Of a stretch of 64,000 nt of DNA, positions 12,601-64,000 are shown in pieces. This stretch comes from Tribonema minus (Eukaryota; Sar; Xanthophyceae; Tribonematales; Tribonemataceae): contig JAFCMP010000012.1 in the NCBI GenBank assembly GCA_017506865.1, positions 124,001 to 188,000 of the forward strand, in the 5' to 3' direction. The stretch's first letter is position 1. Every line of letters begins with the position of its first letter. The notes below the pieces were generated by a model. The model had not been told where the DNA came from, searched no databases, and saw only the letters and a list, made by a program, of their open reading frames with translations. The translations under genes and the position numbers were made by a program.

Positions 12601-15600
12601 CAGCACTACTTTACAAGTCGAGATCACGCGCTGCCGTCTGCTTTTGCGCATGTGGCGCTCTGCTAGCATCTTGCCACCACTAACATTGGTGTCATTGCTG
12701 TTGGCTCCCATGTTTTAAAAAGCGGAATTGTGCTAGCTTTAGAACCTAAGCGTCGACACCAGGAAAATTTGGTGGTGAAATGATCCACAGGTTGCCTTTT
12801 TGGTGCTCTCTTTGTAACCGCCTGATTGTAACTGCCGCACTCCACAGGTGCACAGGGAGACCACTGGGCCTGAGCTGTGGTACCAGACGGACGGAAAGAT
12901 TGATGCTCTGGTCGGAGGCGTGGGAACGGGGGGTACCCTTACTGGCTGCGCACAGTTCCTGAAGCCCCAGAAGCCCAGCATGAAGGTGCGTCAACTTCAA
13001 GTTTGTTTTTTTGCCTCGCAGGGGGACGCACAGCCCCCGATCTGGTGCCCATGTGTGTACCAATCGTATGCGTGTTCATGTGTATGCGCGTATGACGATT
13101 GCAAACACGGCTTGAGAGTCATAGACAGCAAGGCTGCAGTCATGATCGCGGCTGCAGAGGCTGTAGAGTGCCCAGTGGCGCTGAGCAATGCCAATGAGTC
13201 ACTACAGGTTTGGCATGACGTATCCATAGCGTAGTTTGTGATATTGAAGATAGTTTCAATAGGTATCCGGTGCGCTGGAGTCGAAGGAGCATTGTCTATC
13301 CGTGTGGTGGGCACAACTGTGTGTCAGACCACCAGTGCTCAAATGTGTCACACCATGTCGTGTTCGCAAGGCACACTGAAGAGACCTTCAACTTGATGTA
13401 CATCGCATCTGGCAATGCTCCAGTGAACTGATCACTGAATGGCATCCGCGGGCAAATACACCAGCTGGAGCTGGCCTACCGAACACGTGAGACCTTTCCA
13501 TACTGAACCCATGCCCTCGAACGCTAAAAAGCTCGCACACAGAAGTCTTTTGACCTTTGGTCATGAGGGCACTGTTTGACTCGTGGCCAATGACTGCAGC
13601 AGCGGCGACCACGGTTATTGGTGGAAGGCACTTGCGGCTAACCATCCTTTGTCAACTAGAGCTCTAAGATCTTTTTGATTCGTTTCCATACACTCTACGA
13701 TCTTTTGCTTTGTTTTCATGCACAATCACCTTGTACTTTTGCGTTACTTCAAGTGGTAAGTTTATCACCGCTACGCAGCGCTAAAGAGGGACATCTCAGT
13801 CTTGGCCAAAGGCCGTACTGTAGCCTGCAGCATCACAGCTGCCGCAGGTGTAGAACCGAGTCCGTCAGGACCCCCTGTGCCACAGACTACTGGTTTGCAT
13901 CGGCACACTAAGTACTCCTTCTTCATCACAAGTGCCATGTGCAGAGCCCACATTCAAAAGACAGTTTGCGGCTTTCGCAGGCGTCACCAGTGCTGAGTTG
14001 AGTAGCGGCCAGGCTCAACAACTGCTAGCACTCTCATACATACACTGTATCCACCGTGGCTGTTGTGGAAATCTGAAGAGCAGCGAACTCTTACATCCCC
14101 TGGACCAACCCCAGTCTCCGGACTTCTGCTGGTCTGACTGCGTGGTAATTGTGAAGTTTTACTCGCATCTCCTGCACCAATTCCAGTCTCCAGACTTCTG
14201 CTGGTCTGACAGCGCCGTATTTGGAGTTTCACCTGAAGTTGAAGTTTTACTGATGTGGGTTGCTTGTAATGGTGGTCTCAGGTGATCGCCGTGGAGCCCA
14301 CGGAGTCAGTGCTCAGCTGTGGCAAGCCGTAATGTTGAAGTTTCACTTGAAGTTTGAGTATTGTGAGTTTGCCTGTCATGCTGGTGGTCACAGGTGGTCG
14401 CTGTGGAGCCCACGGAGTCCGCAGTACTCAGCGGAGGCAAGCCCGGCCCCCACAAGATCCAGGGCATCGGCGCGGGCTTTATCCCGGGCAACTGCGACAC
14501 CTCGCTCATCGACGAGGTCATCCAGGTGAATAGAAATTCAAGTGATACTTCAACCTAGGGGGTTTCTTTGGTCATGCTGTGCCTACTTGGATGGTGGCAA
14601 GCGCGCTTTTCACCACACGATGGCCACCTCCGGCTAGCGCATGCCTGCTTTGGTCTCAAGAACGGTGCCGTCGCCGCACTAGTCAGTGTAAGGTTCGGAT
14701 AATGATGATGCTCCGGGGGTTGCTGCTGCATGTACTTGGTTGGTTAGTGTCTGTCGCTTGACGTTTGCATGTTGGCAGTCGTGCAGGTGTCTCAGTTTGT
14801 TGTGGTGCTGTGCAGGTGACCCAGGTGAGTGGTCATTCTGTGTTGCACAGCGCAGCGGGTAACACAGGAGTTTCGCGCGTCGTTCCCCGCATGTACTTTG
14901 TGCAGTCCCGTCGGCACGCAACACTTGCGAGCTCACACACGCAGCACGCGCAACGCCGATGCGCCGCGGCCCACCGCTCACCCATTCACATGAGCACCTG
15001 ACTCCCGCAACCTCCTCACAAGCAGCACGCGCGCAATGCCGATGCTTCGACCTCCCCACTCAGGTGAGCTCGGATGACTCCATGGCGATGGCGCGGCGGC
15101 TGGCCCAGGAGGAGGGGCTGCTGGTGGGCATTTCTTCCGGCGCGGCGGTGCAGGCCGCCGTCACTGTCGGTGAGCGCTGCTGCGAATCGCATACCTACCT
15201 ACGCTATGACATTTTGCGGCCAATGAAGTTACTTTGAAGCATATGGGTTGTCTCTGCTTGGCTGCAGCGCGCAGATTGTACACGTGTTGCAGTCGCAGCT
15301 GTGAGACTCGTGTTGAGGTGCACACAGTGGCGCCTTTCGGTCTTCACCTTCGGCTCGCTGGTGGCATTGGCGGGGATGACGTGCAAACCAACAAGGCGAC
15401 TGTCCACAGGGTTGCGGTTTGGGACAGGAGACTGTGAGGCTGTGCACCGCGCGGCTCCTGCGTGTGTGTTGTCAACTGTTTGCAGTACTGCAATACAGCA
15501 AGTGTTGGCGGCTGCCACACAGCAGGTCAAGGGTTCAAGTTGATGTGAGGCTGTGCACTGTGCTCCTGCGTGTGTTGGCGGCCCCCACACTTCAACAGCG

Positions 15601-18789: not shown

Positions 18790-19738
18790 CAGCTCCATGT
18801 TCATCGCCCCCTGAAGTAGTGACTGGTGACTCTAGGTGTGTTCTGCTCTGAGGAGCAATGCCCACAAACCTGTCGTGTCATGGCAGGATCAGTCGTCCAC
18901 TCTAGCCTTCATGGGCAATACACAAAGCATAAGCCTGTCAAGCACGGGGATGGCACATATGCCAGTGGTGATTCCATGTTCACTTGGTATCATTCGGGTC
19001 TTTTATTGTGCTGTTGGCTCTGCGGAGTGATTATGATGTTGCTGCAAGAGCACACTGCTGTGATGAGGGAATTTCCGCTTGCATGTACCTACCTGGTGTA
19101 CAGCGCCGGTTCTTAATGTGGCTTGCAACTTGATGTGGCTTGCAAGCTGATGCATGCAACAGCTTTATCGCTTTAGCCCAGGATTGGAGCATGGTTTCTG
19201 TGTCAAATTGGACATGTCAGCCCCATGCATATATGGATGGATGCCGAATTGAACTCTACATAGTCACCAGGCCGTGGTAAACGTGAGCACAAAAAGAGGG
19301 AGACTAGAATGCCGAATTGAGCTCTACATGCTCGGCTTGTCTTGCTGACTCACTTCCAGATCTCTGCATGCACCAGTCGCCCAGCTGCTTTGACTTTCTT
19401 CCCAGCGCTGAATGACTACTGCAGGATGAACTCACCGATCCTCTCGTTGAAGTTGAAGTAGTGTTCATTTAACTTCAAAAGTGTTTTGAGCCCGCTTTTC
19501 AGAATAATAAAGTACGTTTGGAGGCTTCGAAAGGTTCGCAGGCAGCTTGCCTTGCATTCAGGAGCGAGACAAGCGACGACGGAACAAGCAAAGGCGGCTG
19601 TGGAGTAGCAGGCGATCACAGCAGGGACAGCGACACCGTCCGCCACTAATTGCGCAAAGATCAGATCAGGCTCCAACACATTCCACAAGAGCCGAAGTAC
19701 GCATTGCCAGCTGCCCTCAGCTAGAGGCAAGCTTGGCG
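18790..19738. other. Intergenic spacer
   Basis: No gene seen. It holds small direct repeats: TGTGGCTTGCAA twice at about 19118-19145, and ATGCCGAATTGARCTCTACA twice at about 19241 and 19308. Confidence 0.5.
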
Positions 19739-27440: not shown

Positions 27441-29432
27441 GCAGGCCGCCCGATGGCCGCTCTCGCTGGGGGGGGCGTGCGCCGCACTGCTTGCCTTGTT
27501 TGTGCGAGCCAGCGTCTCGGAGCGAGAGGGCCACCCCTTTCACTGTCGGACGAACGCCGCCGTGAAGAGGTGTTCACAAACTATATTATTTAGGAGAGGA
27601 GATGATTTCAAGACAAATGATTTCACAACACAGCAGAGCCCACACTACTATCCATTGTGCACAGTCCGCTCATCGTCTACTGAGTGGTATGACGACTCTC
27701 GCTTGTTGTCAGTGGGGCTTCAACTACAGGACGCAAAACATGGAGATGCTTGATTTTTTAGCGGCAAGCACCTGCACGGCAACTGCACATATGGGAATGT
27801 GCCAACACAATCAGCTCTCAGTGTACTTTTATTATATTCCACTTGTGGCTGTGGAAATGCCATGTTGTAGGTGTGTCGCCTTGTTCTCACTCTTAAATGT
27901 AGCATGCAAAGCTTGCACGCCACACCCCGCCCCCCACATCACCCCCAACAAAGCACCCGCAAGCGACTGTCCCCCACATACTAGCAGGGATACCAAACAA
28001 AGCTACAAGACTCTCCCCCCACAGACAGACCCGTCTTAGGGCCACCCAGCTCCACGCAGACTCCATCTCAAAGTTTTCATGCAGGCTAAGGTCACCATAA
28101 TGGGCCCTGAACTGGAGATTGTGGCTATCTACGTGAACCCCGATATCATAAAGATAAGCAGAGGGAGTCACTGGGCGCCAGGCGCTGACGCTAGAAAGAA
28201 AGGCTATATAACTAAGCAAAGCATCGCCTCCTTGATGAGCGGGACGGTGGTTCACCGGGCCTCCCATATCACCCCCAACAAAGCATCCGCAAGCGACTGT
28301 CCCCCACACACTAGCAGGGATACCAAACAAAGCTGCAAGACTCTCCCCCCACAGACAGACCCTTCTAAGGGCCACCCAGCTCCACGCAGACTCCATCTCA
28401 AAGTTTTCATGCAGGCCAAGGTCACCATGATGGGCCCTGAACTGGAGATTGTGGCTATCTACGTGAACCCCGATATCATAGAGATAAGCAGAGGGAGTCA
28501 CTGGGCGCCAGGCGCTGACGCTAGAGAGAAAGGCTATATAACTAAGTAAAGCATCGCCTCCTTGATGAGCGAGGTCACGGCTCACCGCAGGCTGCAAGCC
28601 TGACAAGATATTGCCATTTACCGCTGCGAGTAACTTGTGGTTGGTGCCGTGGCGTGCAGCCGATTGCTCTCCAAGCACGCCAAGCCGCTGCCTGGCCCTC
28701 CTCCGCACGCCAGCCAGGGCTTCCGAGACACCACCACACGTTTGAAGTCCTCTCGAAGGGGCTACGCACGCTGGCATCACCTGAGGGCCGCTGGTGCTAG
28801 CTCCTGCAAGCCCTGCAGCCCAGCCCACCCACCAAACCAGCCGCATTCGCTGCCACGCCTTTCGGCGTTAACGAGCTTGGGACGCTGCAGGTGTACTTAT
28901 ACCTCTCATTGTTTTTGCTTTTGAGCACACAAGAATAATTATTGTAGCCTGCGCGCTTGCAGATGTATCGACAGCCAAGCCTTAGTAGACGAATTTCAGC
29001 ACACCGATGGCCTGTTTACATTGTGTCAGTGGTCCAGGGGCCTCAAAGCGCATAATCTGTACGCCACTTCTTTAATTCAAGTATGTGGTGATGCCCTGTC
29101 AAAAGCTGAGGTCAATATCTTGTTTGTGTCGTGCAACCCACACACAACGCAAACTAGTACCTACCTTCAAACTTGCTCCTCGCGCTCAAGCTGTTGTCAC
29201 CCAGCTCCACCCAAGCAGACAATCCATACATTGTATGCGCAACAAGTGCAGCGCCACCGCCAATAGGCGTGCGTACAGAGGCCTTACGCAAGCCCATTGA
29301 CACGGTTTAACCGAGCCAATAAGCTCGCGCGGAAGTTTGCCGCCTTGGCTTTTCAAACCAGTTCCGCCGAGAGTTGAGGTTGGTGGGCTGTGCACAGAAC
29401 CATGCGGTCGCCTGCTCAGCAGCAGCAGCAGC
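27441..29432. other. Intergenic spacer with a 330-base duplication
   Basis: Lies between divergent starts of the RWP-RK gene and the USP-like gene. The main structure is a tandem duplication at about 27935-28590. No gene is firmly supported. Confidence 0.5.
27935..28590. repeat. Recent tandem duplication, 330-base unit
   Basis: Two nearly identical units offset by exactly 330 bases (ACCCCCAACA at 27941 and 28271). Because 330 is a multiple of three, frames stay open on both strands. The minus strand has a 317-codon frame with an ATG start (28846-27893) crossing both units; the plus strand has shorter ones. Substitutions between the units do not clearly favour either frame. No family recognised. 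Confidence 0.8.
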
Positions 29433-37985: not shown

Positions 37986-39367
37986 GTGAGTGTGTACTGT
38001 GGGACCGCCGATTCGGAAGTGGCTTACCCTCGTCGGAACAGTGGGCACCCCATTTTGGCGACTTTGGTGCTGCACGCGTGCATCACTGGTGCACTTGGAT
38101 GGTGCGTTGGTGGTGCGCTGCCGTGCGGGCCTGGGGCAGTTGCTTGGCTCCAATTCCGCACGGTGCAGTGCTCTATTCGTGTGGTATGCGTGCAGTCTCT
38201 GTGCGCTAGCGGAGCGGTTGCGTGCCGTTACACGAGCGCACATGGACGATATGGTCGCAACCACTGCTCAGCAAGCGCAGTACAACAGCAGCAGCACACA
38301 ACACACAAGCCGTGACGTGCCAAGTGCTGGTTATGGTGCGTCTGTCCCGCGCTGGCAATGCAGTGTACCTGCACGTGTGTGTGCCGTGGTGGCAGACATC
38401 ACACACCACACCACACCACGAAAGCTACATCAACTTGCCACCCTCTCGCACAGCTGAGCCAAGCTGTTCTCCATGCTCTAGATTGCGTTCTTTCAGCAAA
38501 ACGTCGCGTTCAACAATGATTATCGGCATGCCAGTCCAAGCATCACCTGCCACACACGACACGGCAAACATATGAGGGAGTTAGACACTGAAGGCGAACA
38601 GCGGCAATTTATTATATTTGCAGTGAGTAGATGCAATGCTTGGAGTGAGTCAATTAGATGCAACACTGCAATCAGCAGGATAAAAACATTGCAGCAGTCT
38701 GCAGTCGCCCATACAGATCATTAATGTATGACCTGCAACAGGAGGATTGCCCAAGCTGCAGGAGCCAGGCCGCCTGAGGCCATCAATAGTGATGGCTGCA
38801 GCTAATGTTGATTGCAGTGGAAGGCAATATTGTGCAACAATAATGAATGGCACCTGAAAGCAACGCTGAGCATATGTAAGGGCTGCAAGGTGCTGTAGCT
38901 ACAGAAACATTGCAGGAGTTGAAGAAAAGTCATTGTTCTTGTTGATGTCTGATGAAAACATAGTAGCTCTGTCACCTACAGTACATTCACGACTTATAGT
39001 TGCAGGAGGCCTGCAGTGACGGCTCATCTTGTTAGAACTAAAAGGGAGTTAGACAAGTAAATTCAGCTGAGCAGTAATACCAGTGATGTGGCGTCAATTC
39101 CTGAAACAAGGGTTATCACATACTCCGAGTAATCTACTAGTAGTATGTTTTAAATTAGTAGCTACTTGTAAAGCTGATGCACAACACGATACAGTGCCCA
39201 CCGCCAACTGCACTCATCGCACTCACTCCACTTCCCCTGTATGAGATCCACTCGAACAGCACTGGGCAGTGATAGGTTGAAGTGATCGAGATATCATCAG
39301 TCACCTGCTGACAGCGCATGGTGTGTCGCCGCCCCCGCCGCCCCCCCCCCAGCCCCCCCAACGGCAG
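37986..39367. other. Spacer between USP-like and Myb-like exons
   Basis: No exon could be supported. It could be an intron if the two sets of exons belong to one gene. GGGAGTTAGACA occurs at about 38577 and 39046. Confidence 0.45.
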
Positions 39368-42300
39368 AAAACGCCTCGCCACCAGTGGACGCCTGAGCAG
39401 GACAAGGTCCTCGTCGCCCGCGGCAATGCACCATACAGCCAGCAATGGCTCAAGCAGCAGCAGCTGCTCAAGGGCCTCAATGTGGGCCAGTGCCGCGACC
39501 GCCGCAAGTACCACCACAAAACTGGCGACATCCCGCCGCCTGAGGTGAGGCTCTGCGCACCGAGGGCCGAATTCACGGCACATGCGCCTCAGGGTCTGCC
39601 GCCGCTGTGGCGGCCCCTGCGTCTCATGGACAGTGAGTAGGTGGCGCCACCTTGCACAGAACTTGCCGCTGCGGCATGAAGAGCTAGCCCTATCTCCTGT
39701 GATTCTGCAGCAGCAGCAGTTGAGCCAGGTTGATCAATCCTGACACCAACTAACTACTGCTGAGCTATGCTGACACCCCAGACAGCAAAAGCAGAAGGCA
39801 AAGCTTGTCTTCAATCCCTAAAACTGTATCTATTCCCCAGGTGCCCCCTAGCACCACCACAGAACTCTATTTCAACTGCAAGAAGACTACTTAAGGGTCT
39901 TCTGGAAGCAAGAAGAATCTTCCCACAAATTCCTGCTCCCAACAGTCACTAGGCAGTTACTGCTGACAATTGTGTAACTGCCAAGCACCCTGCAAGGCAG
40001 CTAGACTTCTCATAAAATGGCAGGGAACATTGCAAGCAAAATGCACACTCCCTACAGGCAGTCGCTGCGGGCACTATCCGCAGCTGCAGCAGTGCTGGCG
40101 TTGCCCTTGCCCATGGCCACCCGGTCTACAGTAAACGCAGCAGCCCGCTGACAGTGCGTGGTGTGTCGCCACCAGGCCCGCTCACGGCAGAAAGGCTCAG
40201 CGCCTCCCCACCAGTGGACGCCTGAGGAGCACAAGGTCCTCGCTGCCCGCGGCAATGCACGATACGACCAGCAGTGGCTGAGGCAGCAGGAGCTGCTCGA
40301 CGGCCTCAATGTGCGCCAGTGCCGCGACCGACGCAAGTACCTCCACAAAACTGGCGTTATCCCGCAGCCTTAGGCTGAGGTGAGGCCCGGTGCCCTGAGG
40401 GCCGAACTCGAGGCACATGCGTCGGGTTGTTGCAACCGTGATTTTTCGAAAAAAATTAGTAGTGTACAAAACATAATTGTAGCGTAACATACCGTAATCA
40501 TAAGCACGTGTTTTTTTCACTGTGCTTTCTCTAGGAAGCGCAAAGTTGTCTAGGGTTGGCATGAGGGTCGGGGGCAGAAGCCAGGTCTACAGTGACCACG
40601 TGGGGGTACGTCCAGCATGTGAGGAGTGCTCAGCGGCATCACCGTGTGTGGGCGGCATGTTTGCTGTCACACGAGTGTATTTGAACACTTGCATCTGCCC
40701 CCTCAGTCATTGGCATGTGCGGATACGCATCTGTGCAACCCTAGTAAGTTAACACCTGCTGACACACCCCATGACCTTGTGATCTTGGCTGTTGCTCTGC
40801 TGTGGTGGCAGCATGCGTTGCACTCGCAATGGACCCGCGCGGAGGAGGAAGCGCTTCTGGCTGCACGTCACGCGAACCTCGCCTTCGAGGCCATACCGTT
40901 GGCCACGGGCAGCCTGCTGTCTGCCCGCTCCGCGGGCGCCTGCCGACATCACTACAACATACTCATCGCTCCGGAACGCCGCAAGTTCCAGGACCAGGTC
41001 AGGACCCGAAGCAACTGCGTTGAGATAGGTTGAGCGATGCCTGTTGGTGTGTGGGTCACCTGACATACTGCGTTCTCCGTGCACAGTTCAAGGATCTTGT
41101 GAAATGCCTGGCCAGCACGTCGTCAACTGCTCTGAGCGCACAGGCAGCTTCCAGCCAATACAGTTGCCAACCGCGCACAATGAGATGTTATATGTTTCTT
41201 GGTTTGTACACCCCAACCGTAACGGTTGCAGAAAAGTAACGCCACAAATACTACTGGGGTTTCAACCGTTGCATGCAACTCCCACTCTCGGTGTTCCTGA
41301 GGAATGTGGGGTGGCTCGGCGCTCGTCATACTGGTGGTGTATGCTGACACAGGCTTGCTGACTCGCCGACGGGCCAAGACGTCCTGCACTGTCCTGCAGA
41401 AGAAGTCAGCTGACATTACACGTTCTCATTTGATGCCATCGCCATCAAGTGCCATGCTGCACGCCATACATAGAACCTCGTATACGCATGTCGCCAACCT
41501 TGTGTCTCAACGATGCTTTGCCGCAGCAATGCTTGCAATAACGCCCTCTCCCCTCTTGCCTCGGTTTCAGGTGCAGAAGCAGTTGCGGGAGAACCCGCCG
41601 TCGCGCACACAGCACACCATCGAGATCAGCGGCCCTCGCCTGACAGACATGTTTTGGACACGCGCCGAGCTCAGCGCGCCTCCAAGCATGGCTTCACTTG
41701 TAGACAGGGCTGAGCTGTGGTGAGTGCGTCCTGCTGTGGTCACAGTGATGATCCCCCTATGTACCTACACGTATCACAAATGTTGAGCGGTGTGCACAAT
41801 GTCAGCATGACTTCCTTCGCTCACCACAGGCAGGACGAGTAGAGTAACTAGAGTACGATTGCTACTCTACTCTTTCAACGTGAGTAGTCGAGTAGTACTC
41901 TCTTGAGATTTGCATTTTGTGTAGAGTGGTCGAGTACTACTTGAGAAGCACTCTGCTTAGCAGGCACTTTTGAGTTGAATACAAGTGATTACTCCTTGTG
42001 AGCTGCCTTTTTTGTATAGGGTTCGAGTACTTTACTCTTAGACTAGTGTTCACTCTAGTACTCTAGTACACTAGAGTGTACTCTATATATTAGAGTACAC
42101 ACTCTACATAATAGAGTAGATTATGCATATTTGAGTATATTCTTGCGCACATTGTCCACTATGCAGACAAAAAGGAGTCCTGGAAGTAATCTACCACAGT
42201 TGTGTGGAAGGGTGTGCAAGGACTTAACTCAAATTTGTCACCCTGATCTCAGCAAATGGTGAAAACATGCATACGTGCAGCTGCTACATGGACAGTCACT

Positions 42301-45300
42301 GCTGTGAACGCCATTAGGTGATGGCAAGCCAGCCGCCGCCCGGCAAGAGTGTTGCTGCCCTTTGGACTAGTCAGTCACGATGCCGTATATACCAAGGCAA
42401 GATATGGTTTGCAGAGGGGGCTTGGGCACAGCGACGAGAGTGGAGTTTCACCGGACTCCTTCTCTAGCTGCTCCAGCTTCTTGAAGTTCGCAACCTCCAC
42501 TCTGACAGCACCTACAGCAACCGGCTTGACGATGCTGCCAATGGGCGGCGCACTGCGCTGACGCGTGCTCTGGTCACTGCACATGCATAGACAGGTCCAC
42601 CACGATCGATGCCGCCTGCGGCTCAGCCAAAGGCCCTGGGTCCCAGTGCAGGAGCCTGCTTAGCGTCCAGGTTGTTAGTACTTGCGCTAGGTTCTCTACT
42701 GCCACCCTTGCTCTCCTCAGCCCTGTACTGTGCCAACCTTTGCACGCCAACTTGAAGTCTGCGACAATTGCAGTTGCAGTTAGAGTGTGTGTGGAGTGTG
42801 ACGTAATGTGACTGGTACTCTAGATGATGGAGTGACAGAGTGGACTACTCCAATTGCATACTCAATGAGTAACAATCACTCTTTCTTACTCTAACTCGAC
42901 GTCAAAGTGTGATTTTGTGATAGAGTACTGGCCACTCTAGTCGCTGCTGGATTTCTGAGGGATTAACAAGTGCGCACTCGTCCAGGCTCGGCAAATTTGT
43001 GTCAAGTACGAGTGATCCACTCCTTGACGGTTACTCACTCTACTACTCTACTCTAATAACTCTTCCTCACTCGTACTCGTCCCGCCTGTGGTGCTCACCC
43101 CTGCGTCTGTGTATGTATCTGGTCTGTGCAGGGAGACCTGCATCCCGGGCCAGACCCTGGAGGCCACGCAAGACAATGCGATGTGGACCACGAACCCCCC
43201 CAGCCTCATGCGACCAGGCAGCTGGCCGATGAGGCTGTCGCAAGCGGGTACTGGTCACATGACGTCCTCAGGCCGCTGGCGCTTGAGGCACTCGCTGCCG
43301 CCCGGTCAGGTGAGTTGGCAGCAAGCTCTGGTGGTCCCTTGCCGATGAAGGAGGCTGCGAGCTTATTCTGGCGCTGGCTCCCGAGCTTGCGAGGTGTTGC
43401 TGCACGGGCGGCGCTGACCGCATGCAGCGCTTGGCACTTGGCATGTATCGCAATACAGTCTCAAGTCTGCGGCCACGCTTCGCGGCCTGCAGAGCTCTCA
43501 AGGGCTCACGAGTCACTACTTTCATGTTCGCCATCCTCCACTTCAAAGCCGTTGAGCGCAACTTCACTTCCTGAGGCGGGAGGGTTAGGTCTGCCCCTAA
43601 CCCTAACTTAGGGTTCGGGCTACTTAGGGTGAGGGCCAGAAACCCTTTCTGGCGCTGATCGCGTGGTGGTGTTGATGTGCTAAGCGTGACACGGCTTAAT
43701 GGCAATGCAGATGTAATCCCGCAGCAGGCCGCACAAGATGATCTCAATGCAACAGAAAACATGAGGTGATGCATATGTTTTAGATTCAAGCAAATGTTGA
43801 GATGGTGGTCTCTGACTTGCTTTAAGCGCAACTTAAAGAGGCTGCCTGCTCCGGCTCGCTCGCCCCCCATTCCTTCAGGAGGGGGGTGTTTTCTTGTATA
43901 TGCTCTATGCAGCATATATGCCAGATGCGCATTTTCGAGCCTCACGTGTGGACCCGCTGCAGTGATGGCTGTTCCACAGTGCGCTTCATGTGCAATGAAA
44001 ACCACAGCAGAACGCACGCACGTTGCTGCTGCCAGGTCGTGTTGGAGCGTCCGCGTGTTACCTCGCCGCTAATTGAATCTCCTCCTCCTCTGTGGCACAC
44101 ATCTTGTGTTCTGCAGTCCCCTCGCAGGAAGTCTGCGCCAAGCTGTGCAAGGAGGGCACGGCTGCGATGCAGAACAGCCACGCGTCTGTGGACCTCGTGT
44201 ACTTCGAGGTCTCCGTGGACGGCCAGATCAAAGCGGACGGCGGCCCGCAGGCCAGCGAGGTACCTCATGTGAGTCATGCGAAAGGGTTAGCGTCGTCGAC
44301 TTTCGAACTCCTGCGTGTGTGTACCAACGCATCTTCACCGCGCATGCAACTGAACATGTCCACACTCATGTACTATCTATGACGCTGCTGGGTCTGGACA
44401 CTCCGTGTAGCAGATGATCGAGCATCAGTCCACACTGGATATGCTGCATTCCCACACTCCGCTTGTTGTTCAGAATTAGTCAGACAGCCTAGGCTCAAAG
44501 CTGTGCAGGCTGTAGCACAATGAGAGCATGAATAGTTCAACACTGCGAGCTCAGCAACGCATATGTAATTGTCAAGCTGCAGGTGCTGCCTCACAGCACA
44601 CCAGGCATACATTGATGCAATGTTTCTTCAGTGCTTAGACCATGGTGACAGACCTCAATGTCAAAATTTAATGCATCATGTTCAAGTGCGCACCGAGTGC
44701 AAACTGGACATGTCCTCGCGTTTCAGCGCCATATGGCACAGATGTGCGATCCTGTCGGGGGTGATGTGCAGTTGAGAACATGTGATGTGTCCGCTCTTGC
44801 AGGCGCTAGTCCAGCAGCACACGCGCAAGACACCTGACGGCGTACCCTACATACGGGAGGTGGGGGGGCGCCGGGGCGAAGCGGGGGTGCCCTCCGTCAG
44901 GGTGCTGACCACGCAACAGGCGCTTGACCGTCGCCAACCCGATGCGGCGCGCAAGGTTCTCTGCAAGGGCGTTTTGAACGTCAACGACATCGTCGCGTTG
45001 GCGTGCCGGGAGTAAGTACATCATTCATTCCGTACTGCTGTGATCCCCACTGTATAATGGAATCTGGGCTTCCGCATCCAGCATCATGCCTCTGAGAGAG
45101 TCACCTCACATTGGCATTGGTGTGTGATGTTGTGTGCATGCACACCGAGACGAGACTCTGTGTTGCAATAGGGTTTGTGGTACTGCACCGATGAGTGTCT
45201 GCTGCGAGTCGGAGGTTTGGGAGTGTGTGACAGAGTCATGATGCTGCGTGATGCAATGTCATGTTTGCCGGCATACATCGCCCGCGACACACCGAGCAGG

Positions 45301-53920: not shown

Positions 53921-56900
53921 ATGGCACAGGAGCATAGCCCAAACGCAGCCGAAGTTGAGGTGCCTAAATCGCTATTGGAAAGGCTGTTGTCGCGACTGGG
54001 AGCTGCAGGCGACGATAGCGATGCAGAGACGCAGCAGCTCTCCCGGATACTCTCTCGCCATCTTCACCGGCGGCGCGGCTCATGCTCCCCTCCCAGAGAG
54101 GAGCCGCAACTCAACTTGAATGCAGTCAATGCTGCCGGGGATGCACTGCTTGATGCAGCGCCACTGGCAGGATTCGATGGTGCTCTCAGCCCTGCGAGCG
54201 CCAGGCGGCGCACCACCAGCCCCAGCCTTGGCAACAGCCCTTCGCTGTTGTGGGCACTGCACCTAGCGAGGTCAGGCAGTTCAAGCATATCGCCTCCACC
54301 AGGCGAGAGAGGCAGCAGAGCGGGGGCGCCGCCGACAAAAACAAGTCCGGCTGCAGCAGATGACGGCAGCGAGACGCTTTCCTCCAGGGCCAGCCTGAGA
54401 CTTCGGCACCCTCATGCGAGAAACAGCAGTGTCGGTGCCGCCTCCGCTGTTGCAGCGGAGGCCGCCTCCTTCAACTATCACAGGGCAGCGGCAGCTCCCG
54501 CAGAGCACGAGTTTCACGCGCTGCTGTCGGATTTGAAGAGCCTTGGGTGTAAGGCGCACGTCCACGCCTACTGCCGCAGGCTCATGGCCTTCACGCTGAG
54601 CTCCCTGGACGGCTGCGCCTGCGCCTCGGCATTTTTATTGGAGGACGGCGACGGGGGATGGAGGCGGGGCGCGGACGGCACCGACAGAGCACGCTTCATG
54701 CTCACACCTATTGCAGTGGAGACGGAGGACACGCTGGCGGCGGCGGCGGCGGCGGACGCACCAGCAGGGGGGCGGTACCGCAGGAGGTCGTCGGCGTACG
54801 GCGCCATGACGCCGGTGGAGGTGGACGAAGGGATGCTGCTTGGGCGGGCTGTTGCGCAGGCGCGGAGCTGTGCGGCACAGGTATGTTGGCATGTTCAGTG
54901 TCATGTGGTGCAAGTGGCGGGCAGCACGGCAGAGCAAGGCCTGCTGCTAGGTTTTATTGCAGTGAGGCAGGCAGTGTTGATTGCAGCTTTGTTATGCTGG
55001 TATCCTCAGGCATGTGTGCGGTGCAGTGAGGTTACGTCCCAAGAAGCGCAGAATGTGTTGATAGTGTCTTTGACACGCCGTAATGTGCACACTCAACTTC
55101 TTGCAAGAACTTCAACAGTGTTTACATCAACCATCCAAGGTGCACATTGATGAGTATATGAGTCCTGGCCATTGCAAGGGCACTTGCGCTCATTGGGTGT
55201 GGATGACTTGCCGCGCACCACCTCAGCAGATCCGTAACATATTCTGGCCGTGTCCAATTAGACATGTCGTATGGCAGTATTGTGTGCGTTTTATCTGCTG
55301 GTACCTATACCACAAACTGGGGTTTGATGCACTGACCATATACAAAATGGACATTGGCTGACTGCACATGTGAGTAGCTGAACTGACTGCTCCTGTGCGA
55401 GATCAGCACTGCAGGTGTTGCGGCAGTGTATGAAGTGCTAGGAGGCAGAGCAACTGACTCATTGCATTGACGATTGTGAAGCCAGCTGCTTGTGACAGCC
55501 GTCTCCTGTTCGTGACTATGCTGTGTACACTGCCTTGCAACCCAATTCTGGCAGCTGGTTCAAAGGCATCGCCCTGACACGGGCTACCGTCAGCAGCATG
55601 GAAACCTGCTCCAAAGCAGCGCACGCGGCACATGCTTGCAACGCACCTCACGATGACTGCTTCCTCTCTATCTTTTGCTTATGGTGACTCACCTGCTGTA
55701 TTCTCAATTGATGTATGTTCATTTAACAACAGGTGCATCTGCCGGGTGATAAGGCGCCTCGGTGGGGACTCACTGTCCCCGTAACGGCAGCAGACGGCTC
55801 CATTCTGGGAGTCATACAGGTGGTCAGGCGCGCAGAGGGGGGGGGCAAGGGGCCAGCCGGCACCCCCTCCCGGGACCCCCCCCCTTCCCCCTGCAGAGAC
55901 GCCAGTCGGGAGGCCCCTGGGGAGCATGCGCGGGGGGGATCCGTGAGCAGTGGCAGGGGGGTGCGCAGGAAGGGGGGCGCGGGGGGTGACTTTGTGGGGG
56001 AGGAGGAGGGGGTTGTGTGCCAGGCCGCGGAGCTGATGGCGGCAGCGCTGCACGTGCACGCGCTGGCGCAGCGTGCTGAGCAGGTGACGCTCCGTCTCTC
56101 TAATTCAACTGTTTCTCTACTTCAATTGTTTCAACTGTGCTGCATGCGGGCCGCAGGGGTCGAAGAGCTGTCGAACATGCTTGTACTTTTAAGCGATGGC
56201 TGGATTGCTGGTATAAAGTGACAGTATGTGCGTGGGCGGCTGTTGGAAGGCTGTCTGCAGAGGCTGTCACCAGCGCACTGCAGCAGGTGATAAGTGCTGC
56301 TTTTGTGCTACTTCACTCTGGAAGTAGGTCATGGAAGCTGCATTCGGGATGACGCCCTCCGCCTACACGACAGAAAAGCCCTCATGGCCACTGCGTGCGC
56401 ATGTTGCGGCGCGCTAGAGCTGAGCGGCTCCGCCTTACAACTGTGCAGTTGAAACGGCGACATGAGTCACTTGAGACTTGTCATGGCAGGGGACTGTACA
56501 GTGCGCAGTGCCGTGATCGCTGGTGCAGCTGCCGGCGCCCCCATCGGCTGCAGAGACAATGGGCGCAGTGCTGCAACTTCAAGTGCTCACTTCAAGTGCT
56601 CACGGCTGACACGGTGCACTCAGCAGCTGAGCATCTGCTGGTTTGGCCGTCCAGTTTAGGCAGCACCGTGATGTCATGTGGTGGCTGCGTTGAAAGTCTC
56701 AATTGTCAAGTTCTGAGGTTCGTAAATTCTCAACTGTGATCTGAAGTTCGCTTTGAACGTTGGCGTGCATCGGTCACCGCAGGGCAGCACGCCCAGCGCC
56801 TTTGTCCGCCGCGCGGACTGTGCTGTGTTGCCACGCCGCAGCACCCAACAGGCAGCAGCGCAGCAGCGCCAGCCAGCAGTGCTCCGGCTGGTGAGCGCTG

Positions 56901-59900
56901 TGTAACTTCAACCCTAATTCATGCTGCTTAGGGTTAGGTCAGGGTTTAGCGTTGGTGCTTCGGCTGCGGAGCGCTGAGTGCACTCGCCCAATGACCCCTC
57001 ATTCACATGAGTGGCGGCGGTTGCACTGATTGGTACGAGCGCCAACCCTAAGTCTAGGCCCAGAGTTGTCATGCCCGTTACAGGTTCAACTCATGTGCCA
57101 TGTTTCATCAGCACCGCCTTCATCATCAGGGATGTGATAGATGTGGGGGTCCAAACCGTGAAGAAACCCTAATCCTGACTCCATCTCCACGGCAACTGGC
57201 CCACAGTCTCTTGCAAGCGATGTACTTGCCAACAATGCAGCACCTCGTGTACACCATCCGTCCCCTGGGACCTGCGGCACTTCTTAAGATTAGGGTTAGG
57301 GTTGGGGTGCAACTCATTCACTTTTTGTGCACAGTGTAGCGGCATCTGTCGCGTCGTCTTTTCACGCCGTTCGCTGACAACATCGAGGAGATGTTGTTGG
57401 AAAACTCTGCGCAGCATACATCGCTGCAAGCAGGTTGTGATGCATGCCGCTACAAACCGCAGACGCTGGCAGACCGACGCGTTGTCAGGACCGACGTCTG
57501 TCATCACCCCCCATCATCACGCACAAAACTGCTGCTGCCACCGTGTGCCTACCGTCTGCTTTTGTTTTATCCTCTTCGTTGGTCGCGTTCTCACCAAACG
57601 TCAACTCTCCCCGCCCCCTTTTGCCCCCCCACACCCCACACCCCTCCCCCACACCCCCTGCGACGCAGGACGTCCCCTCCAAGCCCCCCCTCGGCAGCGG
57701 CAGCGCCGCGGACGCCGCCATGTGCGCCGTGCTGCAGAAGACCTTTGACGTGTGCCGTCAGCTGCTGGCAGCGACGGGCGTGACGCTGTTCAGGATGGAC
57801 GCATCTGGCCGCACGCTCACGGCGACGCACGCTGCGGATCCAGCAGTGCTCGGCGTGGCGCTGCCCGTGGTACGTTGTATGTAATGTATGTATGTATGTA
57901 TGCTCTTGGGCTGGAGGGCAGGATCGTCGCTGTGCAGGCTTTAGAGTTCCACGCTTCGGAATACGAGAGGTGTCGAGAGTAGGTAAGGAGAGGTTTGCTG
58001 AAATGCGCATGGTGGATACGGCAGTGCTCGACGTGGCGCTGCCCGTGGTACGTATGTATGTATGCATGTCGAAGTATGCATGTATGCAGGCTTTCACGCT
58101 GGAGGGCAGGGTAGACTAGCCGCTGTGCAGGCTTCAGAGTTCGAGAGGTGTTGAGAGTAAAGAGAGGTGTGCTGAATGTGCGCATGGTGGATACGGCAGT
58201 GCCCAGCATGTGGCGCTGCCCGTTGTGTGTATGGATGGACATTCTAGAGCTGGGCCGGGTAAGTATGTATGGCCATGCTAGGGCTGGGGCGTAGGTCGCC
58301 GCTTAGGGTTGGGTGGTTGAATGAACAGGGTGCGGATTGTGTTCTCGTGGCTGCAATGCTTGCAGTGGTGCTCGTCATAGCCCTGTGCGTGGAACGTACG
58401 TTAATGAGTCTTGAGCTGGAAGTGGGGTCGCATCATGCATGTATTTAGTCATGAGTGTATCTGTTCACCAGAGGGCTGGAGCCACCGCAGGGCTCTTGTT
58501 GTGCCCTCAGCGTTACCGCTCACGTTGGGATTGAGCAATGCTCGTCTGCCAGAGGCGGGCCTTCTAGTCCTGTTGCATGACGCCTGCGTTGGCAGCACGC
58601 CTGCGGCGCCAGGTCACGGTAACCCTAATACTTCGAAGTACTAACCCTGATCGTAGCCCTAAGGAGGTCACCATTCTCGCCAGACAATGTCGGAAGCGTC
58701 GAAGGCTCCTTTGCGTAGATCCTTCAAGTGTATGGTAGCGGGACTGCAGGTTTGCACGAGTGCAGCTGGCGAAGAGTGCCAATCCGCCTGAATGCAGCCA
58801 GGAGGGACGTTTGTGGCCAGATCCATTGTTTTCACATGAATATGCTTCCATGTATGTGAGTGAGTCTGTGTGTCTCTGTGTGTGTGTGTGGGGGGGTGGG
58901 TGTGAGAATATGTGCGTGTAGTAGGCGTAGGTGTAAGTGTATGTTCATGTATGCGCCACGCGGCAGCATGCCTCCGCAAAGGTGCGCGCCGCGCAACACG
59001 CTTCAACAGGGTCCGACGCGTCGCCGCCATCACATCTAACCCGCTGCACCGAATCCGGCATAGGATTGACCGCTCGTGCTGCTGTGTCAATTGCGTCTTG
59101 TGATGCTGCAGGGCAAGGGACTGGCAGGTACAGTGGCCAGGGACGGCGAGCCGCTGAACGTTCCAGACGCGTACCGTGACCCACGCTTCAACAGGTGACA
59201 CTGCACTCCTTTCTTCAGCAGCTCCAGGATCAACACAATTCAATCTCTAGCCAGGCGCTTTTGCAGAATGCCATTTTTATTCACCTGCGTCAGACTTGTA
59301 TGTCACACAGTTGAACTCGGCACACGACAAGTGCACAAGATGGCTGATTGCGCGCGTTCCACATTGAAGTTGAGTTGTGCACATACATACCTGCACTAAC
59401 CAATTTCACCGTCCGTCACACGTTTGAACTGCATTGTGCGCAGTTTGAGAGTAACGCCCGACCCGCGCGTGTTTGTGTTGAAGTTCAAGTTGCGCGGCGC
59501 GCACACATAGTCTGCGTCCATCGCAGGGAAGCGGATGCCAAGACGCTTTTTTAATACAGTTGAAGTAGCGTAAACACTTGAAGCAGGGTCCCAAATGTGC
59601 GTTGAAGGTGAAGCTGAGTGGCGTGCACATGGTTCGCATCAATTGCAAGGAGATGGACGCCAGAACGGTGTCCAAGTCGCTTTGCTTCAAAGTATGCTTT
59701 TGTTTTGAAAAGTGCAAGCTAACCAGGGCATGCCCGTCATCAATTGAAGTAGCCCCCCACTGCATGTCTCCGTATTGAAGTTGCAGCTCAAATGGCAATG
59801 CGCATGTCATCCATGTCTGTTGCAGGGAGGTGGACGCCAAGACGGGGTTCAAGACGCGCTGCGTGCTGTGCGTGCCCGTCAATGACTGCGACGGCAAGCT

Positions 59901-62900
59901 GCTGGCGGTGGTGCAGGCTGTAAATAAGCAGGTTTGTGCGCTTACATACTACTGCTACTATTAAAAATTCACGTTTTTGCTATTTGAGCGTGAGCTGCTG
60001 GCGGTGGTGCAGGCTGTACATAGCAGGTTCGCGCTCACTACTGCAGATGCGCTGTTTTTGCAACTTGTATGTGGCGTCAACAGGCAGGTTCGCGTGCTCA
60101 CTACTGCTCCTACTAGTTCCATGTTTTTGCTACATGGTTCAACGTCAGCTGCTGGCGTGGTGCAGGCTGTAAACAAGCAGTGTCGCGCACTTGCTGCTGC
60201 AGACCCACGTTTCTGCTAGTTCAATGTGAGCTGCTGGCGGTGGTGCGGGCTGTTGACCAGCAGGTCTGTGTGCTTACTACTGCTAGATGATCATGAGCTG
60301 CTGGCGATGGGTGCAGGCTGTAAACAAGGTTCGCGCAGTATTCTGCAGATCGCACAAGCATGAACGCAGACAGATGGCATCACAGTCACGCCTACCGCAC
60401 TTCATGTCGTTTTTCATCCGCCTGAAGTGCGTTGACTGCCTGGTGCCCGTGCCCTATTGAAGTCACAGCTGAAGTTGCAGCAGAACGGCCGCAACTTCGC
60501 AGTGTCAACTGTATGTCTACGTCACTCATATCATCGCTGCTGCGCCGCTCTGAACATGTTCTCGTCTGCCCTCCTGCTACGCACGCGCGCGCTCTGTTTC
60601 TGCGCGGCAGAACGGCAGCACTTTCACGGGCGAAGACGTTGCCGTGCTGCAGCACATTGCGCACCTGGCCGGCATTACGCTGCACAAGGCCTCGGTGCTC
60701 AGCCCCAGCACCAGCCCAAACAAGGTGAAGTTGCACAATGCCGTGTGGTAGTTGAAGATGTGTTGAAGCGAAGTAATGTTGACGTGGCTTTGGCGTCGCC
60801 CTCTGCACAAGGCCTCAGTGCTCAGCCCCAGCGCCAGCCCTACCAAGGTGTGATGTTGTGCACTGGCATTGGTTTTGAGTGCAGAAGCTGTGCTCTTTGC
60901 TTTGTCTGTATATCGACGGGCATGCGTGAATTGACTCAAAACTCCTACATTTTGTAGTTGTGGGCATGGCATCACTCTGCACAAGGCCTCAGTGCTCAGC
61001 CCCAGCACACCAGCCCTACCAAGGTGAACTTGCGCAATGGCGCATGTGGTAGTCGAAGATGAGTTGATGCGATGCAATGTTTACATGTCTTTGGCATCGT
61101 CCTCTGCCCAAGGTCTCAGTGCTCAGCCCCAGCACCCACTCAAAACGAGGTGAACTATGCGCACTGCCGTCTGTTTTTGGTGAAGGAGCTGCACTCTTTG
61201 TATGCTCTGTACTTCTATGTGGCAGCGGGCATGTGTTGGTTGAATTCAAGCTCTTGGTATTTTGTCATATTGTAGCGAGGGGCATTAGGAAAATGTGCAC
61301 AAGGCCTCAGTGCTCAGCCCCAGCGCCAGCCTTACCAAGGTGAATGACGCTCAGTGCCGTTCTGTTTTCGATGGACAAGCTGTGCTCCTATGTTTGTTCT
61401 GTATGTGGCGGCGGGCATGTGTTGGTTGATGTCAAACTTTTGGCATTTTAGTACATTGTAGCGGGGGGCATGGCTTAAACGCTCACAAGGCCTCAGTGCT
61501 CAGCCCCCGCACCAGCCCTACCAAGGTGAACAACGCACGCTGACGTCTGTTTTCTGTATGTGGCGGCGGGCTGTGTCGGTTGGATAAAAAACTTTGGTGT
61601 TTTTCATGGCATAAACATTCACAAGGCCTCAGTGCTCGGCCGCGGCACCAGCCCAAACAAAGATGAGTTGAAGGATCGCCTGCTGCACAAGGCCTCTGAA
61701 CTTGCGCACTGGCATCAGTCATTTTCAGTGAAGAGAAAGCCCACACGGTGAGCATGTGGTAGCTGATTCAAAGTCCTGGTACTTCATGCTGTAGCGGGGG
61801 GGAGTGACATGAGCCTTCACAAGGCCTCAAACCATCCTCCGTGCCCGTGCGAACCGTGCCATCGCAGGCCGACAAGCACAGTGCGCCGAGCGCTGCTGCA
61901 GGCTGTAGCTCGCCGTGCTGAGCAGCGCCACTTCCAACATCGCAGCGCTCAGCCATACACATATTGTACTTCAATGAGCACCTTACTTATACAACTGCTT
62001 CTGAGCCTTTGCCCGCAACAGGAGACAATCCTCGCAACTCAAAACCTGATCATGCACGCGCACACCACGCCATCGCAGGCTGACAAGCACAGTGCGCCGA
62101 GCGCTGCTGCGGGCGATGCGGCGGACCCCAACCCCGCGTCGCCGCCGCGCCTGCAGCCGCGGCAGCCGCCCCGCCACCGCAGCACGCAGTCCCTGTCGCC
62201 TCAGCAGCAGCAGCAGCAGTCGCCGCCGCACCAGCGCTCCCCCCGCCCCGGCGACAGCGGCGGCGGCGGCAGCGGCAGCATCGGCGGCAGCGGCAGCGGC
62301 GGCGGCCACCGCCGCAGCTCCACGCGCGGCCTCTTTGCCGCGTGTCGCCGCGCTACGGCGCTGTCGCAGAGCTTCATGCGGCGCGGCGGCGGCGGCGGCG
62401 GCGGCAGGCGCGGCAGCGAGGCGTCCACGTCGCGCGGCGCTGCAGCGGCAGCAGCGGCGGCGCCGGCGCCGGCGGCAGCAGGGCCGCACCCTGCGGCGCG
62501 CGACAGCATTGCGGCGCGGCGCGCATCGGAGCCGCTGTCGGGCACGCTCGCTGTGAGGTGGGGCGCGCTGGGGTTGGGGGGGTTGGGGGGAGGGAATGCT
62601 GCGGCGGCGGCGGCGGCGGCGCACAGGGACTTGTTTGTCTGGGACCTGGACGTGCTGTCCCTGAGCAGGTGAGTGCTTTGGGACAGCTGCGTGGCGGGGC
62701 TTGAAGTTGAACTGGGTAGCGTTCATGTGTGTGGCGTGGTGTTGTGGTGCGTGTGTTACTCAGCGGCACTGCGCCCGTTGGCCACATACTTTGTACACGC
62801 ACACACACGTAGTATCATACATCCCCACTGGCTCTTGCTGTGGGAGGCTTGTCCGAACTGGAGCCGGCGTGGAGTCGACCTGTTTGGATACTGTTGAGGT

Positions 62901-64000
62901 TACTAATTTGAAGTACGTCACCCGGCGCACAGCATGCATTAGACCTGCCGGTGCAAGTCGCGCAGCAGTGCACTTGGGCTATCCGCTTCCCCCCTCACCC
63001 CAACCGTCACCTCGACTCTCTGGTCCTGAGTCACCCGCCAAGTGTAACCGTCGACACAGCGATGCCCTACAGTTCACAGCTGAACTCTGCATGCACCGAG
63101 CGCTTCGACGATGCACTCTGCATTGTAGCCATGTACTGCAATGGAGCCTGCGCTTGTCGAAGGCGCCCTTTTCTGGTGGCGTGCAGCGACCGCAAGAGCG
63201 CTCGCGCCCAACCCTGACCCTAATGCCTAACCCTAATGCCTTGCCCTTGCACTTCCGACAGCCCACACCCGTGCTGTAACGCCACCGCTTTGTGCGACCT
63301 TCCCTAGAGTTCATTGCTGAACTCTGCGCGTACTGAGCACTGCCCCATATTGTGCACGCGCAGAGATGATATGGTGGCCCGCATTGTGGCAGCCTTCCGG
63401 TCGTTTGCCTCCCCTAGAGTTCACTGCTGAACTCTGCGTGTACTGAGCGCTGCTGCCCCCGTTTTGTGTGTCCGCAGAGACAACATGGTGCTTCGCATTG
63501 TGGCCGCCTTCCAGTCATTCGGCCTACTGAGCAGAGGCCTGGAGGAGGCTACCGTGCGCGCGTTTGCCATAGAGTCGGCGGCGCGCTACCGGCCCAACCC
63601 GTACCACAACTTCCACCACGCGTTCTGCGTGCTGCACGCGACGCAGTTCATGCTGCGCAGCAGCCACATCAAGGTGAGCTGCGACTCGTTTTTTTGTGAA
63701 TTCATGAGTTCATTGTGGTTTCATGAATATTCATGATGCTGCGCAGCAGCCGCATCAAGGTGAGCCGCGACTGGCTGCTTTTGTGAATTCATGAATTCAT
63801 GTACAATCATGAAGTCAGCACGCACGTCACGCATGCTGCGCAGCGGCCGCATCAGGGCGAAACGCGGCTGGCTGTATTGTGACTTCATGAATTCATGCAA
63901 AGTCAAGAAGTCGGCACGCAGGTCATGCTGCGCAGCAGCCGTTCTTAAAAGGTGAGACATGACTCGTCGTTTGCAACTGCATGAAGTTCATGTGAATTCA
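53921..64000 (+). CDS. Cyclic-nucleotide phosphodiesterase, GAF-GAF-PDE, 3' truncated by window
   Basis: Hydrolyses cAMP and/or cGMP. Exons: 53921-54880, 55733-56083, 56783-56890, 57669-57869, 59112-59194, 59826-59931, 60611-60724, 62079-62668, 63478-63673; 903 codons, all phases agreeing. Residues 1-190 are disordered. A first GAF domain spans about 190-430, ending [18 protein letters not shown] second spans about 473-641: [39 protein letters not shown]. Exon 8 is a low-complexity linker ending W-D-L-D-V-L. Exon 9 opens the catalytic domain, [13 protein letters not shown], with the catalytic His near residue 881; the metal-binding Asp residues lie beyond the window. GAF domains suggest allosteric control by cyclic nucleotide. 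Eight exon edges have tandem copies in adjacent introns. Confidence 0.93.
57290..57306. repeat. Interstitial telomere-like repeat
   Basis: TTAGGGTTAGGGTTGGG in phosphodiesterase intron 3. Confidence 0.65.
57838..58320 (+). repeat. Copies of phosphodiesterase exon 4 donor edge
   Basis: The exon end GTGGCGCTGCCCGTGGTACG recurs near 57850, 58033 and 58210, with a partial fourth unit near 58265. The period is about 180 bases and includes downstream intron sequence (TATGTATG tracts, CTGGAGGGCAGG). Confidence 0.85.
59500..59850 (+). repeat. Copies of phosphodiesterase exon 6 acceptor edge
   Basis: Acceptor plus exon start (GCAGGGAGGTGGACGCCAAG) is present at 59822 in the used exon, with older copies near 59523 and 59645. 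Each carries an upstream TTGAAGTT stretch. Confidence 0.75.
59890..60335 (+). repeat. Copies of phosphodiesterase exon 6 donor edge
   Basis: About six copies of GAGCTGCTGGCGGTGGTGCA then GGCTGTAAACAAGCAGGTT, roughly every 80-110 bases, near 59897, 59990, 60090 (partial), 60148, 60229 and 60295. The first is the real exon end. Confidence 0.85.
60470..60500 (+). repeat. Partial copy of phosphodiesterase exon 7 acceptor edge
   Basis: CAGCAGAACGGCCGCAACTTC resembles the exon 7 start at 60608-60626 (CGGCAGAACGGCAGCACTTT). Confidence 0.55.
60681..61840 (+). repeat. Nine copies of phosphodiesterase exon 7 donor edge
   Basis: The exon end CACAAGGCCTCAGTGCTCAG, then CCCCAGCACCAGCCCTACCAAG|GTGAA, recurs near 60684, 60806, 60980, 61106, 61298, 61484, 61620, 61686 and 61818. 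Most copies keep a potential GTGAA donor. The spacing is 65-190 bases, and intervening sequence is also shared (GTTGGTTGA, GGCGGCGGGC). Confidence 0.9.
61850..62105 (+). repeat. Copy of phosphodiesterase exon 8 acceptor edge
   Basis: CATCGCAGGCyGACAAGCAC then AGTGCGCCGAGCGCTGCTGC occurs at 61859 and at the used acceptor (62071). The upstream copy then diverges. Confidence 0.85.
63300..63520 (+). repeat. Copy of phosphodiesterase exon 9 acceptor edge
   Basis: A unit of about 110 bases runs from CCCTAGAGTTCAyTGCTGAA through the acceptor CGCAG into the exon (GGCATTGTGG-like CGCATTGTGGC). It occurs twice, at about 63303-63412 and 63413-63520. Confidence 0.85.
63645..63960 (+). repeat. Four copies of phosphodiesterase exon 9 donor edge
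   Basis: CATGCTGCGCAGCAGCCrCA then TCAAGGTGAGCyGCGACT at about 63648, 63735, 63828 and 63925, separated by TTCATGAATTCATG tracts. Confidence 0.9.

What the first reader, a model, noticed from the sequence alone, without database searches (positions are those of the whole stretch)
53921..64000. Exon-edge duplication pervades the introns of one gene
In the phosphodiesterase gene, eight exon edges (donor edges of exons 4, 6, 7, 9; acceptor edges of exons 6, 7, 8, 9) have decaying tandem copies in the neighbouring intron. Each copy spans the splice site. The same pattern appears in the fucosyltransferase-like, cysteine synthase and Myb-like genes. This looks like a genome-wide mechanism that lengthens introns, offers competing splice sites and may seed new exons. 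I know of no standard feature type for it.
Basis: partly seen in the sequence, partly recalled or inferred. Interest (0 to 1): 0.88.

Follow-up and report, generated by a model that had tools for sequence, protein, structure and literature searches.

The report
Tandem-duplicated introns carrying exon edges
In some genes of this alga the introns have grown by repeated local copying of their own DNA, and where the copying ran across an intron's end it left decaying spare copies of exon edges with their splice signals; the copies look like unselected leftovers, but there are unusually many of them.

Summary
The copies are real. Seven of the eight named exon edges of the phosphodiesterase (PDE) gene have local direct copies spanning the splice site; the acceptor of exon 7 did not pass. 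Other genes have them too: 33 of 70 edges in five affected genes on four contigs, 27 of 235 edges in the first survey.

The edge is not special. In affected genes 55-nt intron tiles have a local copy about equally often at the 5' end (16/39), 3' end (12/39) and interior (188/521), flat with distance from the splice site. Exon interiors are almost free of copies.

Copies are direct and local. They decay at all codon positions, take frameshifting indels, and keep GT/AG about as often as plain decay predicts (60/74 against 0.75). A close relative's HPPD protein contains none.

Best reading: local tandem duplication (nearest copy 73-374 nt away, median 126) expands introns in a subset of genes; edge copies are the tolerated overrun, because splicing keeps the outer site. 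Two cluster tests point to edges instead and are reported. Unusual: the frequency, the clustering by gene, and the overrun ending mostly within about 60 nt of the exon.

The parts
53921..63673 (+). PDE gene, exons 1-9: 53921-54880, 55733-56083, 56783-56890, 57669-57869, 59112-59194, 59826-59931, 60611-60724, 62079-62668, 63478-63673; the gene model continues to about C12:195322 outside the window
   Evidence: searches (frame and splice sites; gene finder), Pfam GAF and PDEase_I, homologue alignment
57836..58237 (+). Donor edge of exon 4 with two copies; copy junctions at 58048 and 58225 (both GT)
59527..59865 (+). Acceptor edge of exon 6 with two copies; copy exon starts near 59527 and 59649 (the second has lost AG)
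59897..60350 (+). Donor edge of exon 6 with five copies; junctions 60027, 60088, 60181 (GT lost), 60264, 60329
60671..61663 (+). Donor edge of exon 7 with six copies; junctions about 60848, 61024, 61150, 61340, 61526, 61662 (last GA, not GT); most copies share differences from the functional edge
61842..62114 (+). Acceptor edge of exon 8 (functional 62079) with one copy, exon start 61868
63065..63519 (+). Acceptor edge of exon 9 (functional 63478) with one copy, exon start 63364, and a weaker intronic relative at 63065-63104
63610..64000 (+). Donor edge of exon 9 (functional 63673) with copies at 63760, 63857 (GC, not GT), 63952 and at least one more beyond the window
14221..14443 (+). Acceptor edge in the cysteine synthase gene with one tandem copy (77% identity); a purely intronic pair lies at 14094-14223
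   Evidence: PALP domain

Best explanation
Local tandem duplication of short DNA stretches has expanded introns in a subset of genes of this alga. Nearest copies lie 73-374 nt from the functional edge (median 126, 32 edges). Breakpoints fall anywhere in an intron and sometimes run across a splice site. Such an overrun duplicates an exon edge, and it is harmless as long as splicing keeps using the outermost donor or acceptor, so it persists and decays as non-coding DNA. Shown: copies are direct and local, about as frequent inside introns as at their ends, rare in exon interiors, and frameshifted without regard to coding. Inferred: replication slippage, unequal exchange or tandem duplication at breaks as the cause; purifying selection as the filter that keeps duplications out of exons and limits the overrun.
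For: Flat profile: in PDE, PI4K, HPPD, L034 and L036, tiles with a copy are 16/39 at the 5' end, 12/39 at the 3' end, 188/521 inside; by 55-nt step from the splice site 0.36, 0.32, 0.31, 0.39, 0.36, 0.39, 0.31, 0.39, 0.43. Exon windows of 30 nt by distance from the edge: 32/70, 11/63, 1/48, 0/34, 0/22, 0/13. Direct only: reverse-complement probes 0/119 and 0/116 at z>4. Local: three of four edge sequences searched in the whole genome match only their own intron; the fourth has one further 78% match on C257 (that search scores only best candidates). Functional-to-copy mismatch 0.113, 0.123, 0.151 at codon positions 1, 2, 3, and 23 of 28 indels in the exon part not a multiple of three. GT/AG kept in 60 of 74 copies against 0.75 expected from exon-part identity. 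All five HPPD junctions contiguous in a 97% identical EukProt protein. Introns longer in affected genes, 803 against 454 nt.
Against: Placement of duplication clusters favoured edges: 27 of 41 clusters spanned an edge, 7.9 expected, 0 of 20,000 simulations; without PDE, HPPD and PI4K 8 of 20 against 3.8. With exons masked, clusters touching an intron end were 15 of 43 against 2.9 expected, 11 of 36 against 2.4, 7 of 32 against 1.7 and 5 of 25 against 1.4 at rising thresholds. I think both nulls were too strict, since they forbid or ignore deep runs into the exon, but they count against me. The first 30 nt of exon has a copy more often (32/70) than 30-nt windows at intron ends (18/66); I ascribe this to the exon partner being held by selection, which was not tested. 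Copies resemble each other more in the exon-derived part than in the intron-derived part (0.888 against 0.769; 17 of 22 pairs, 9 of 9 arrays), which plain neutral decay does not predict; probe choice may explain part. The overrun is shorter than uniform breakpoints give: at least 80 nt in 0.06 of 32 edges against 0.24 expected. Why some genes carry far more than others is unexplained (14 of 5000 permutations as extreme, 37 of 5000 without PDE).
Confidence: 0.75

Rival explanations
1. A process aimed at exon edges copies about 40-60 nt of exon together with the splice site into the neighbouring intron.
For: Cluster placement tests; best copies reach a median of 42.5 nt into the exon; exon-terminal windows have copies more often than intron-terminal ones (32/70 against 18/66); edge cores much better conserved than the rest of the unit in some arrays, for example PI4K intron 6.
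Against: Flat profile of duplicated tiles across introns; many arrays are full tandem units that include ordinary intron; purely intronic clusters exist (14 of 50 gene clusters).
Confidence: 0.12
2. The copies are kept by selection as alternative or decoy splice sites that regulate splicing of these genes.
For: 54 of 59 copies keep GT or AG in the first, gene-finder-based set, a local peak over neighbouring positions; exon-derived parts are conserved between copies.
Against: With corrected junctions retention is 60 of 74, close to the 0.75 expected; only a slight third-position excess and mostly frameshifting indels; the HPPD protein of a close relative contains no copy.
Confidence: 0.08
3. 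Mobile or dispersed elements (introners or transposons) happen to sit at exon edges.
For: Repeats lie inside introns near splice sites.
Against: Whole-genome searches with four edges find the copies only in their own intron, apart from one 78% match on C257; no inverted copies at z>4.
Confidence: 0.02
4. Assembly artefact.
For: Tandem repeats are error-prone in assemblies.
Against: Edge copies differ by roughly 3-30% from each other and from the edge, which stutter of one sequence would not give. No reads were available to check.
Confidence: 0.02

Closest known systems
Tandem genomic duplication spanning an intron-exon structure (potato RdRp gene, PMC4974935, passages read)
   Same: A tandem duplication that includes a splice site and flanking exon; the same paper mentions an 83-bp tandem duplication inside an intron of that gene.
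   Different: There the duplicated acceptor is used and a new intron is gained; here the copies appear to stay unused inside an existing intron and number up to seven per edge.
Intron gain by tandem duplication of an AGGT-containing exon segment (Rogers 1989 model as described in PMC4974935; Drosophila cases in PMC2891723; passages read)
   Same: Internal tandem duplication creates extra splice sites.
   Different: In that model the duplicated segment is exonic and becomes the intron; here the unit contains exon edge plus intron, and no new intron was seen.
Introner-like elements (PMC4457414, seen in search listing only)
   Same: Repeated sequences connected with introns.
   Different: Those multiply between genes; here the copies are local to one intron.
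Intronic minisatellite-like tandem arrays (recalled, no source consulted)
   Same: Direct tandem units, no function needed.
   Different: Here the units span splice sites and are mostly divergent, and they occur at many edges of one gene.

Membership tests
Local tandem (segmental) duplication | Direct orientation, nearby copies | tested here: met
   Reverse-complement probes 0/119 and 0/116 at z>4; nearest copy at 73-374 nt, median 126
Local tandem (segmental) duplication | Copies confined to the locus | tested here: met
   local only; local plus one 78% match elsewhere; the search scores only best candidates
Local tandem (segmental) duplication | Placement independent of splice sites | tested here: inconclusive
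   Flat profile meets it; cluster tests point the other way
Intron gain by tandem duplication (Rogers model) | Duplicated segment is exonic and encloses the new intron | tested here: not met
   Copies carry intron sequence beyond the junction and lie inside existing introns
Introner elements | Near-identical elements dispersed in many genes | tested here: not met
   (four edges)
Tandem exon duplication / mutually exclusive exons | Complete exon copies with both splice sites and open frame | tested here: not met
   Best copies reach a median of 42.5 nt into the exon, 23 of 28 indels shift the frame; 5 of 50 clusters contained a whole predicted exon, one of which (PI4K, C2 block 42496-43066) rested on a wrongly predicted exon
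Functional alternative splice sites | Use in transcripts | not testable with these tools
   Only one relative's translated transcript (HPPD) available; no copy used there

The most novel reading that the evidence does not exclude
In this lineage local tandem duplication, rather than transposon insertion, is a main route by which introns lengthen, with a burst-like concentration in certain genes; splicing tolerates up to seven spare copies of a splice site per intron by holding to the outermost one, and a limit of about 60-80 nt of copied exon marks where a copy begins to be recognised as an exon.
Probability: 0.3. Interest if true: 0.6.

Novelty: new variant of a known kind. Interest (0 to 1): 0.42.

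Why it matters
If the frequency holds genome-wide, these genes are natural experiments in splice-site choice: many near-identical donor and acceptor copies stand in tandem and the spliceosome must still pick one. They also give a visible route for intron growth. Gene predictors can be misled by the copies: mine called several copies as exons.

Tried and rejected
Edge-specific mechanism: first favoured by cluster placement and exon-masked clusters, set aside, not refuted, after the tile profile. In one search four of the 27 edge clusters have exon overlaps of 75-490 nt and one of 73 nt, outside the 10-65 nt range of the other 22 and outside the 70 nt allowed in its simulation; at least some of these look like coding repeats. 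Selection on copy splice sites: first suggested by 54 of 59 retained and the positional peak, set aside when corrected junctions gave 60 of 74. In PI4K intron 6/7 my gene finder had placed the junctions 20 and 28 nt off; sequence reading and homologue alignment corrected this, and one copy counted as AG-keeping had in fact lost it. The anchored alignment had a baseline of about 0.6 between unrelated sequences, and the MAFFT comparison (copy-copy identity 0.74 exon, 0.60 far intron) forces poorly alignable spacers; one search was used instead, and it keeps only alignable pairs. Four edges were dropped before the copy counts as not true edge copies. In one search codon positions of PI4K after exon 6 are out of frame through my shift; PDE alone gives 0.126, 0.121, 0.171, so its third positions are somewhat higher. 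One search (PDE homologues) gave no transcript of the same species. Rfam found nothing at its gathering thresholds. Searches for the phenomenon in print (listings) found single-gene tandem-duplication cases but no census of splice-edge copies; the library lacks most subscription papers.

Limits: about 340 kb of 158 Mb was read. Exon support differs: HPPD by a close relative's protein, PI4K and PDE largely by homologues (not PDE exons 1-3), L034 by tblastn with splice sites chosen by me, L036 for one of five exons only. L036 shows 3 of 10 edges, one of them weak, and 1 of 8. Other gene models come from a self-trained finder.
Full report
WHAT IS THERE. The window is C12:124001-188000 of a 158 Mb, 554-contig genome. 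Protein relatives point to a photosynthetic stramenopile: the best organism-named relatives of the PDE and of the phosphatidylinositol 4-kinase (PI4K) are from Chrysoparadoxa, with brown algae following for PI4K. The gene at 53921 encodes a GAF-domain phosphodiesterase. Its exons 1-9 lie in the window and it continues beyond. A self-comparison shows direct tandem pairs at its splice sites.

THE OBSERVATION. The exon 7 donor has six copies, the exon 6 donor five. A probe of 40 nt exon plus 15 nt intron finds a copy in its own intron (z>4) at 14 of 119 donor and 13 of 116 acceptor edges over 264 kb. The controls at the same cut-off: 0 of 119 and 0 of 116 for reverse-complement probes, 1 of 78 and 0 of 78 for exon-interior probes, and 16 of 106 for intron-interior probes. 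Hits were concentrated in 7 of 28 genes: PDE 9 of 27 edges (this model still held some copies as exons), the PI4K gene on C2 8 of 11, HPPD 3 of 10, two nitric oxide synthase genes 3 of 16 and 2 of 31, cysteine synthase 1 of 9, and one hit in one further gene. Three kinase loci chosen only by Pfam hit gave 6 of 10, 1 of 7 and 3 of 10 edges, and the 3' exons of PI4K 6 of 12. In five affected genes with corrected exons the total is 33 of 70: PDE 11/22, HPPD 3/10, PI4K 13/22, L034 5/8, L036 1/8.

ARE THE FUNCTIONAL EDGES RIGHT? HPPD was joined from six exons. A EukProt protein from a close relative (97% identical) runs through all five junctions with no insertion, and solved HPPD structures align over residues 2-401. 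Many PDE and PI4K junctions were checked against Chrysoparadoxa and another relative. This, with direct reading, corrected two PI4K junctions and exposed one predicted PI4K exon as a copy. PDE exons 1-3 and four of five L036 exons lack homologue support.

IS THE EDGE SPECIAL? This was the main question. Two tests said yes. Duplication clusters spanned edges in 27 of 41 cases against 7.9 expected, or 8 of 20 against 3.8 without PDE, HPPD and PI4K, and exon-masked clusters touched intron ends in 15 of 43 cases against 2.9 expected, falling to 5 of 25 against 1.4 at the highest threshold. Both nulls treat runs into the exon as nearly forbidden. A test without that assumption asks, for every 55-nt intron tile, whether it has a copy elsewhere in the same intron. 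In affected genes the answer is yes for 16/39 at the 5' end, 12/39 at the 3' end and 188/521 inside, with no trend in distance; in the remaining genes 4/117, 6/117 and 106/1422. About a third of the intron tiles of these genes have local copies, and intron ends are hit about as often as any other site. Inside the exon the signal falls off: 32/70 for the first 30 nt, 11/63 for the next, 1/48, then 0/34, 0/22, 0/13. The first value exceeds that of 30-nt windows at intron ends (18/66), which may reflect slower divergence of the constrained exon. Uniform breakpoints would let 24% of overruns pass 80 nt; 6% do (32 edges).

HOW DO THE COPIES EVOLVE? Mismatch to the functional edge is 0.113, 0.123 and 0.151 at codon positions 1-3 and 0.187 in the intron part, and 23 of 28 indels in the exon part break the frame. 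GT or AG is kept in 60 of 74 copies; the square of the exon-part identity predicts 0.75. A lower rate in the exon part against the functional edge is expected, because one partner is held by selection (0.871 against 0.778, 24 pairs). Less expected is that copies also resemble each other more in that part (0.888 against 0.769, 22 pairs). Choosing copies with exon-rich probes may explain some of this; short-tract conversion between copies or weak constraint is not excluded.

EXTENT AND CLUSTERING. Of 156 introns, 49 have at least two duplicated tiles; heterogeneity between 38 genes is matched by 14 of 5000 permutations, and by 37 of 5000 without PDE. Introns are longer in affected genes (803 against 454 nt), as growth by duplication predicts; length was not held fixed in that comparison. 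Copies do not spread: whole-genome searches with four edges return only the home intron, plus one 78% match on C257 for the HPPD edge.

MECHANISM. Most likely, short local tandem duplications arise anywhere in non-coding DNA. Those wholly inside exons are removed by selection on the protein. Those that cross a splice site survive if the outermost donor or acceptor stays in use. An exon copy long enough to look like an exon may be selected against, which would explain the short overrun; this last step is a guess.

KNOWN OR NEW. Tandem duplication across intron-exon boundaries is published in single cases: a potato RdRp gene where it created a new intron (PMC4974935, passages read). Drosophila introns gained by duplication of coding sequence are a related case (PMC2891723, passages read). 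A 2007 paper on human introns from tandem arrays was seen only as a reference entry. A paper on Chlamydomonas genomes discusses long introns and shows Ectocarpus as atypical, but in the passages I saw not this cause (PMC8226300). I found no census of unused splice-edge copies in the listings. The kind is known; the density and gene clustering here are the unusual part.

Noticed in passing
L024 (C3:113536-119979) and L026-L027 (C3:134802-149634): Two nitric oxide synthase genes on opposite strands share introns 4-6 at 98-99% identity while neighbouring introns differ in length and align only in part at 71-85%; this looks like a gene conversion tract between paralogues. Nitric oxide synthase oxygenase domain confirmed for one.
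   Followed up: partly
window 27923-28571: Tandem duplication of a 330-nt unit at 96% identity inside a predicted intron; on C1 (about 129631-130231) a 301-nt unit is duplicated at 100% identity.
   Followed up: no
window 57290-57309, 63210-63240; C12 about 191560-191600: Short runs of TTAGGG / CCCTAA-like repeats scattered in introns (seen by eye).
   Followed up: no
window 17662-19649: Predicted protein with many Cys/His-rich repeats of about 18 residues (CEHGR...CKECGG), an internal repeat in coding sequence.
   Followed up: no
window 36656-40421: Two blocks (384 and 253 nt) duplicated, one about 3 kb and one about 0.8 kb away, at 81-82% identity, around the start of a predicted gene.
   Followed up: no
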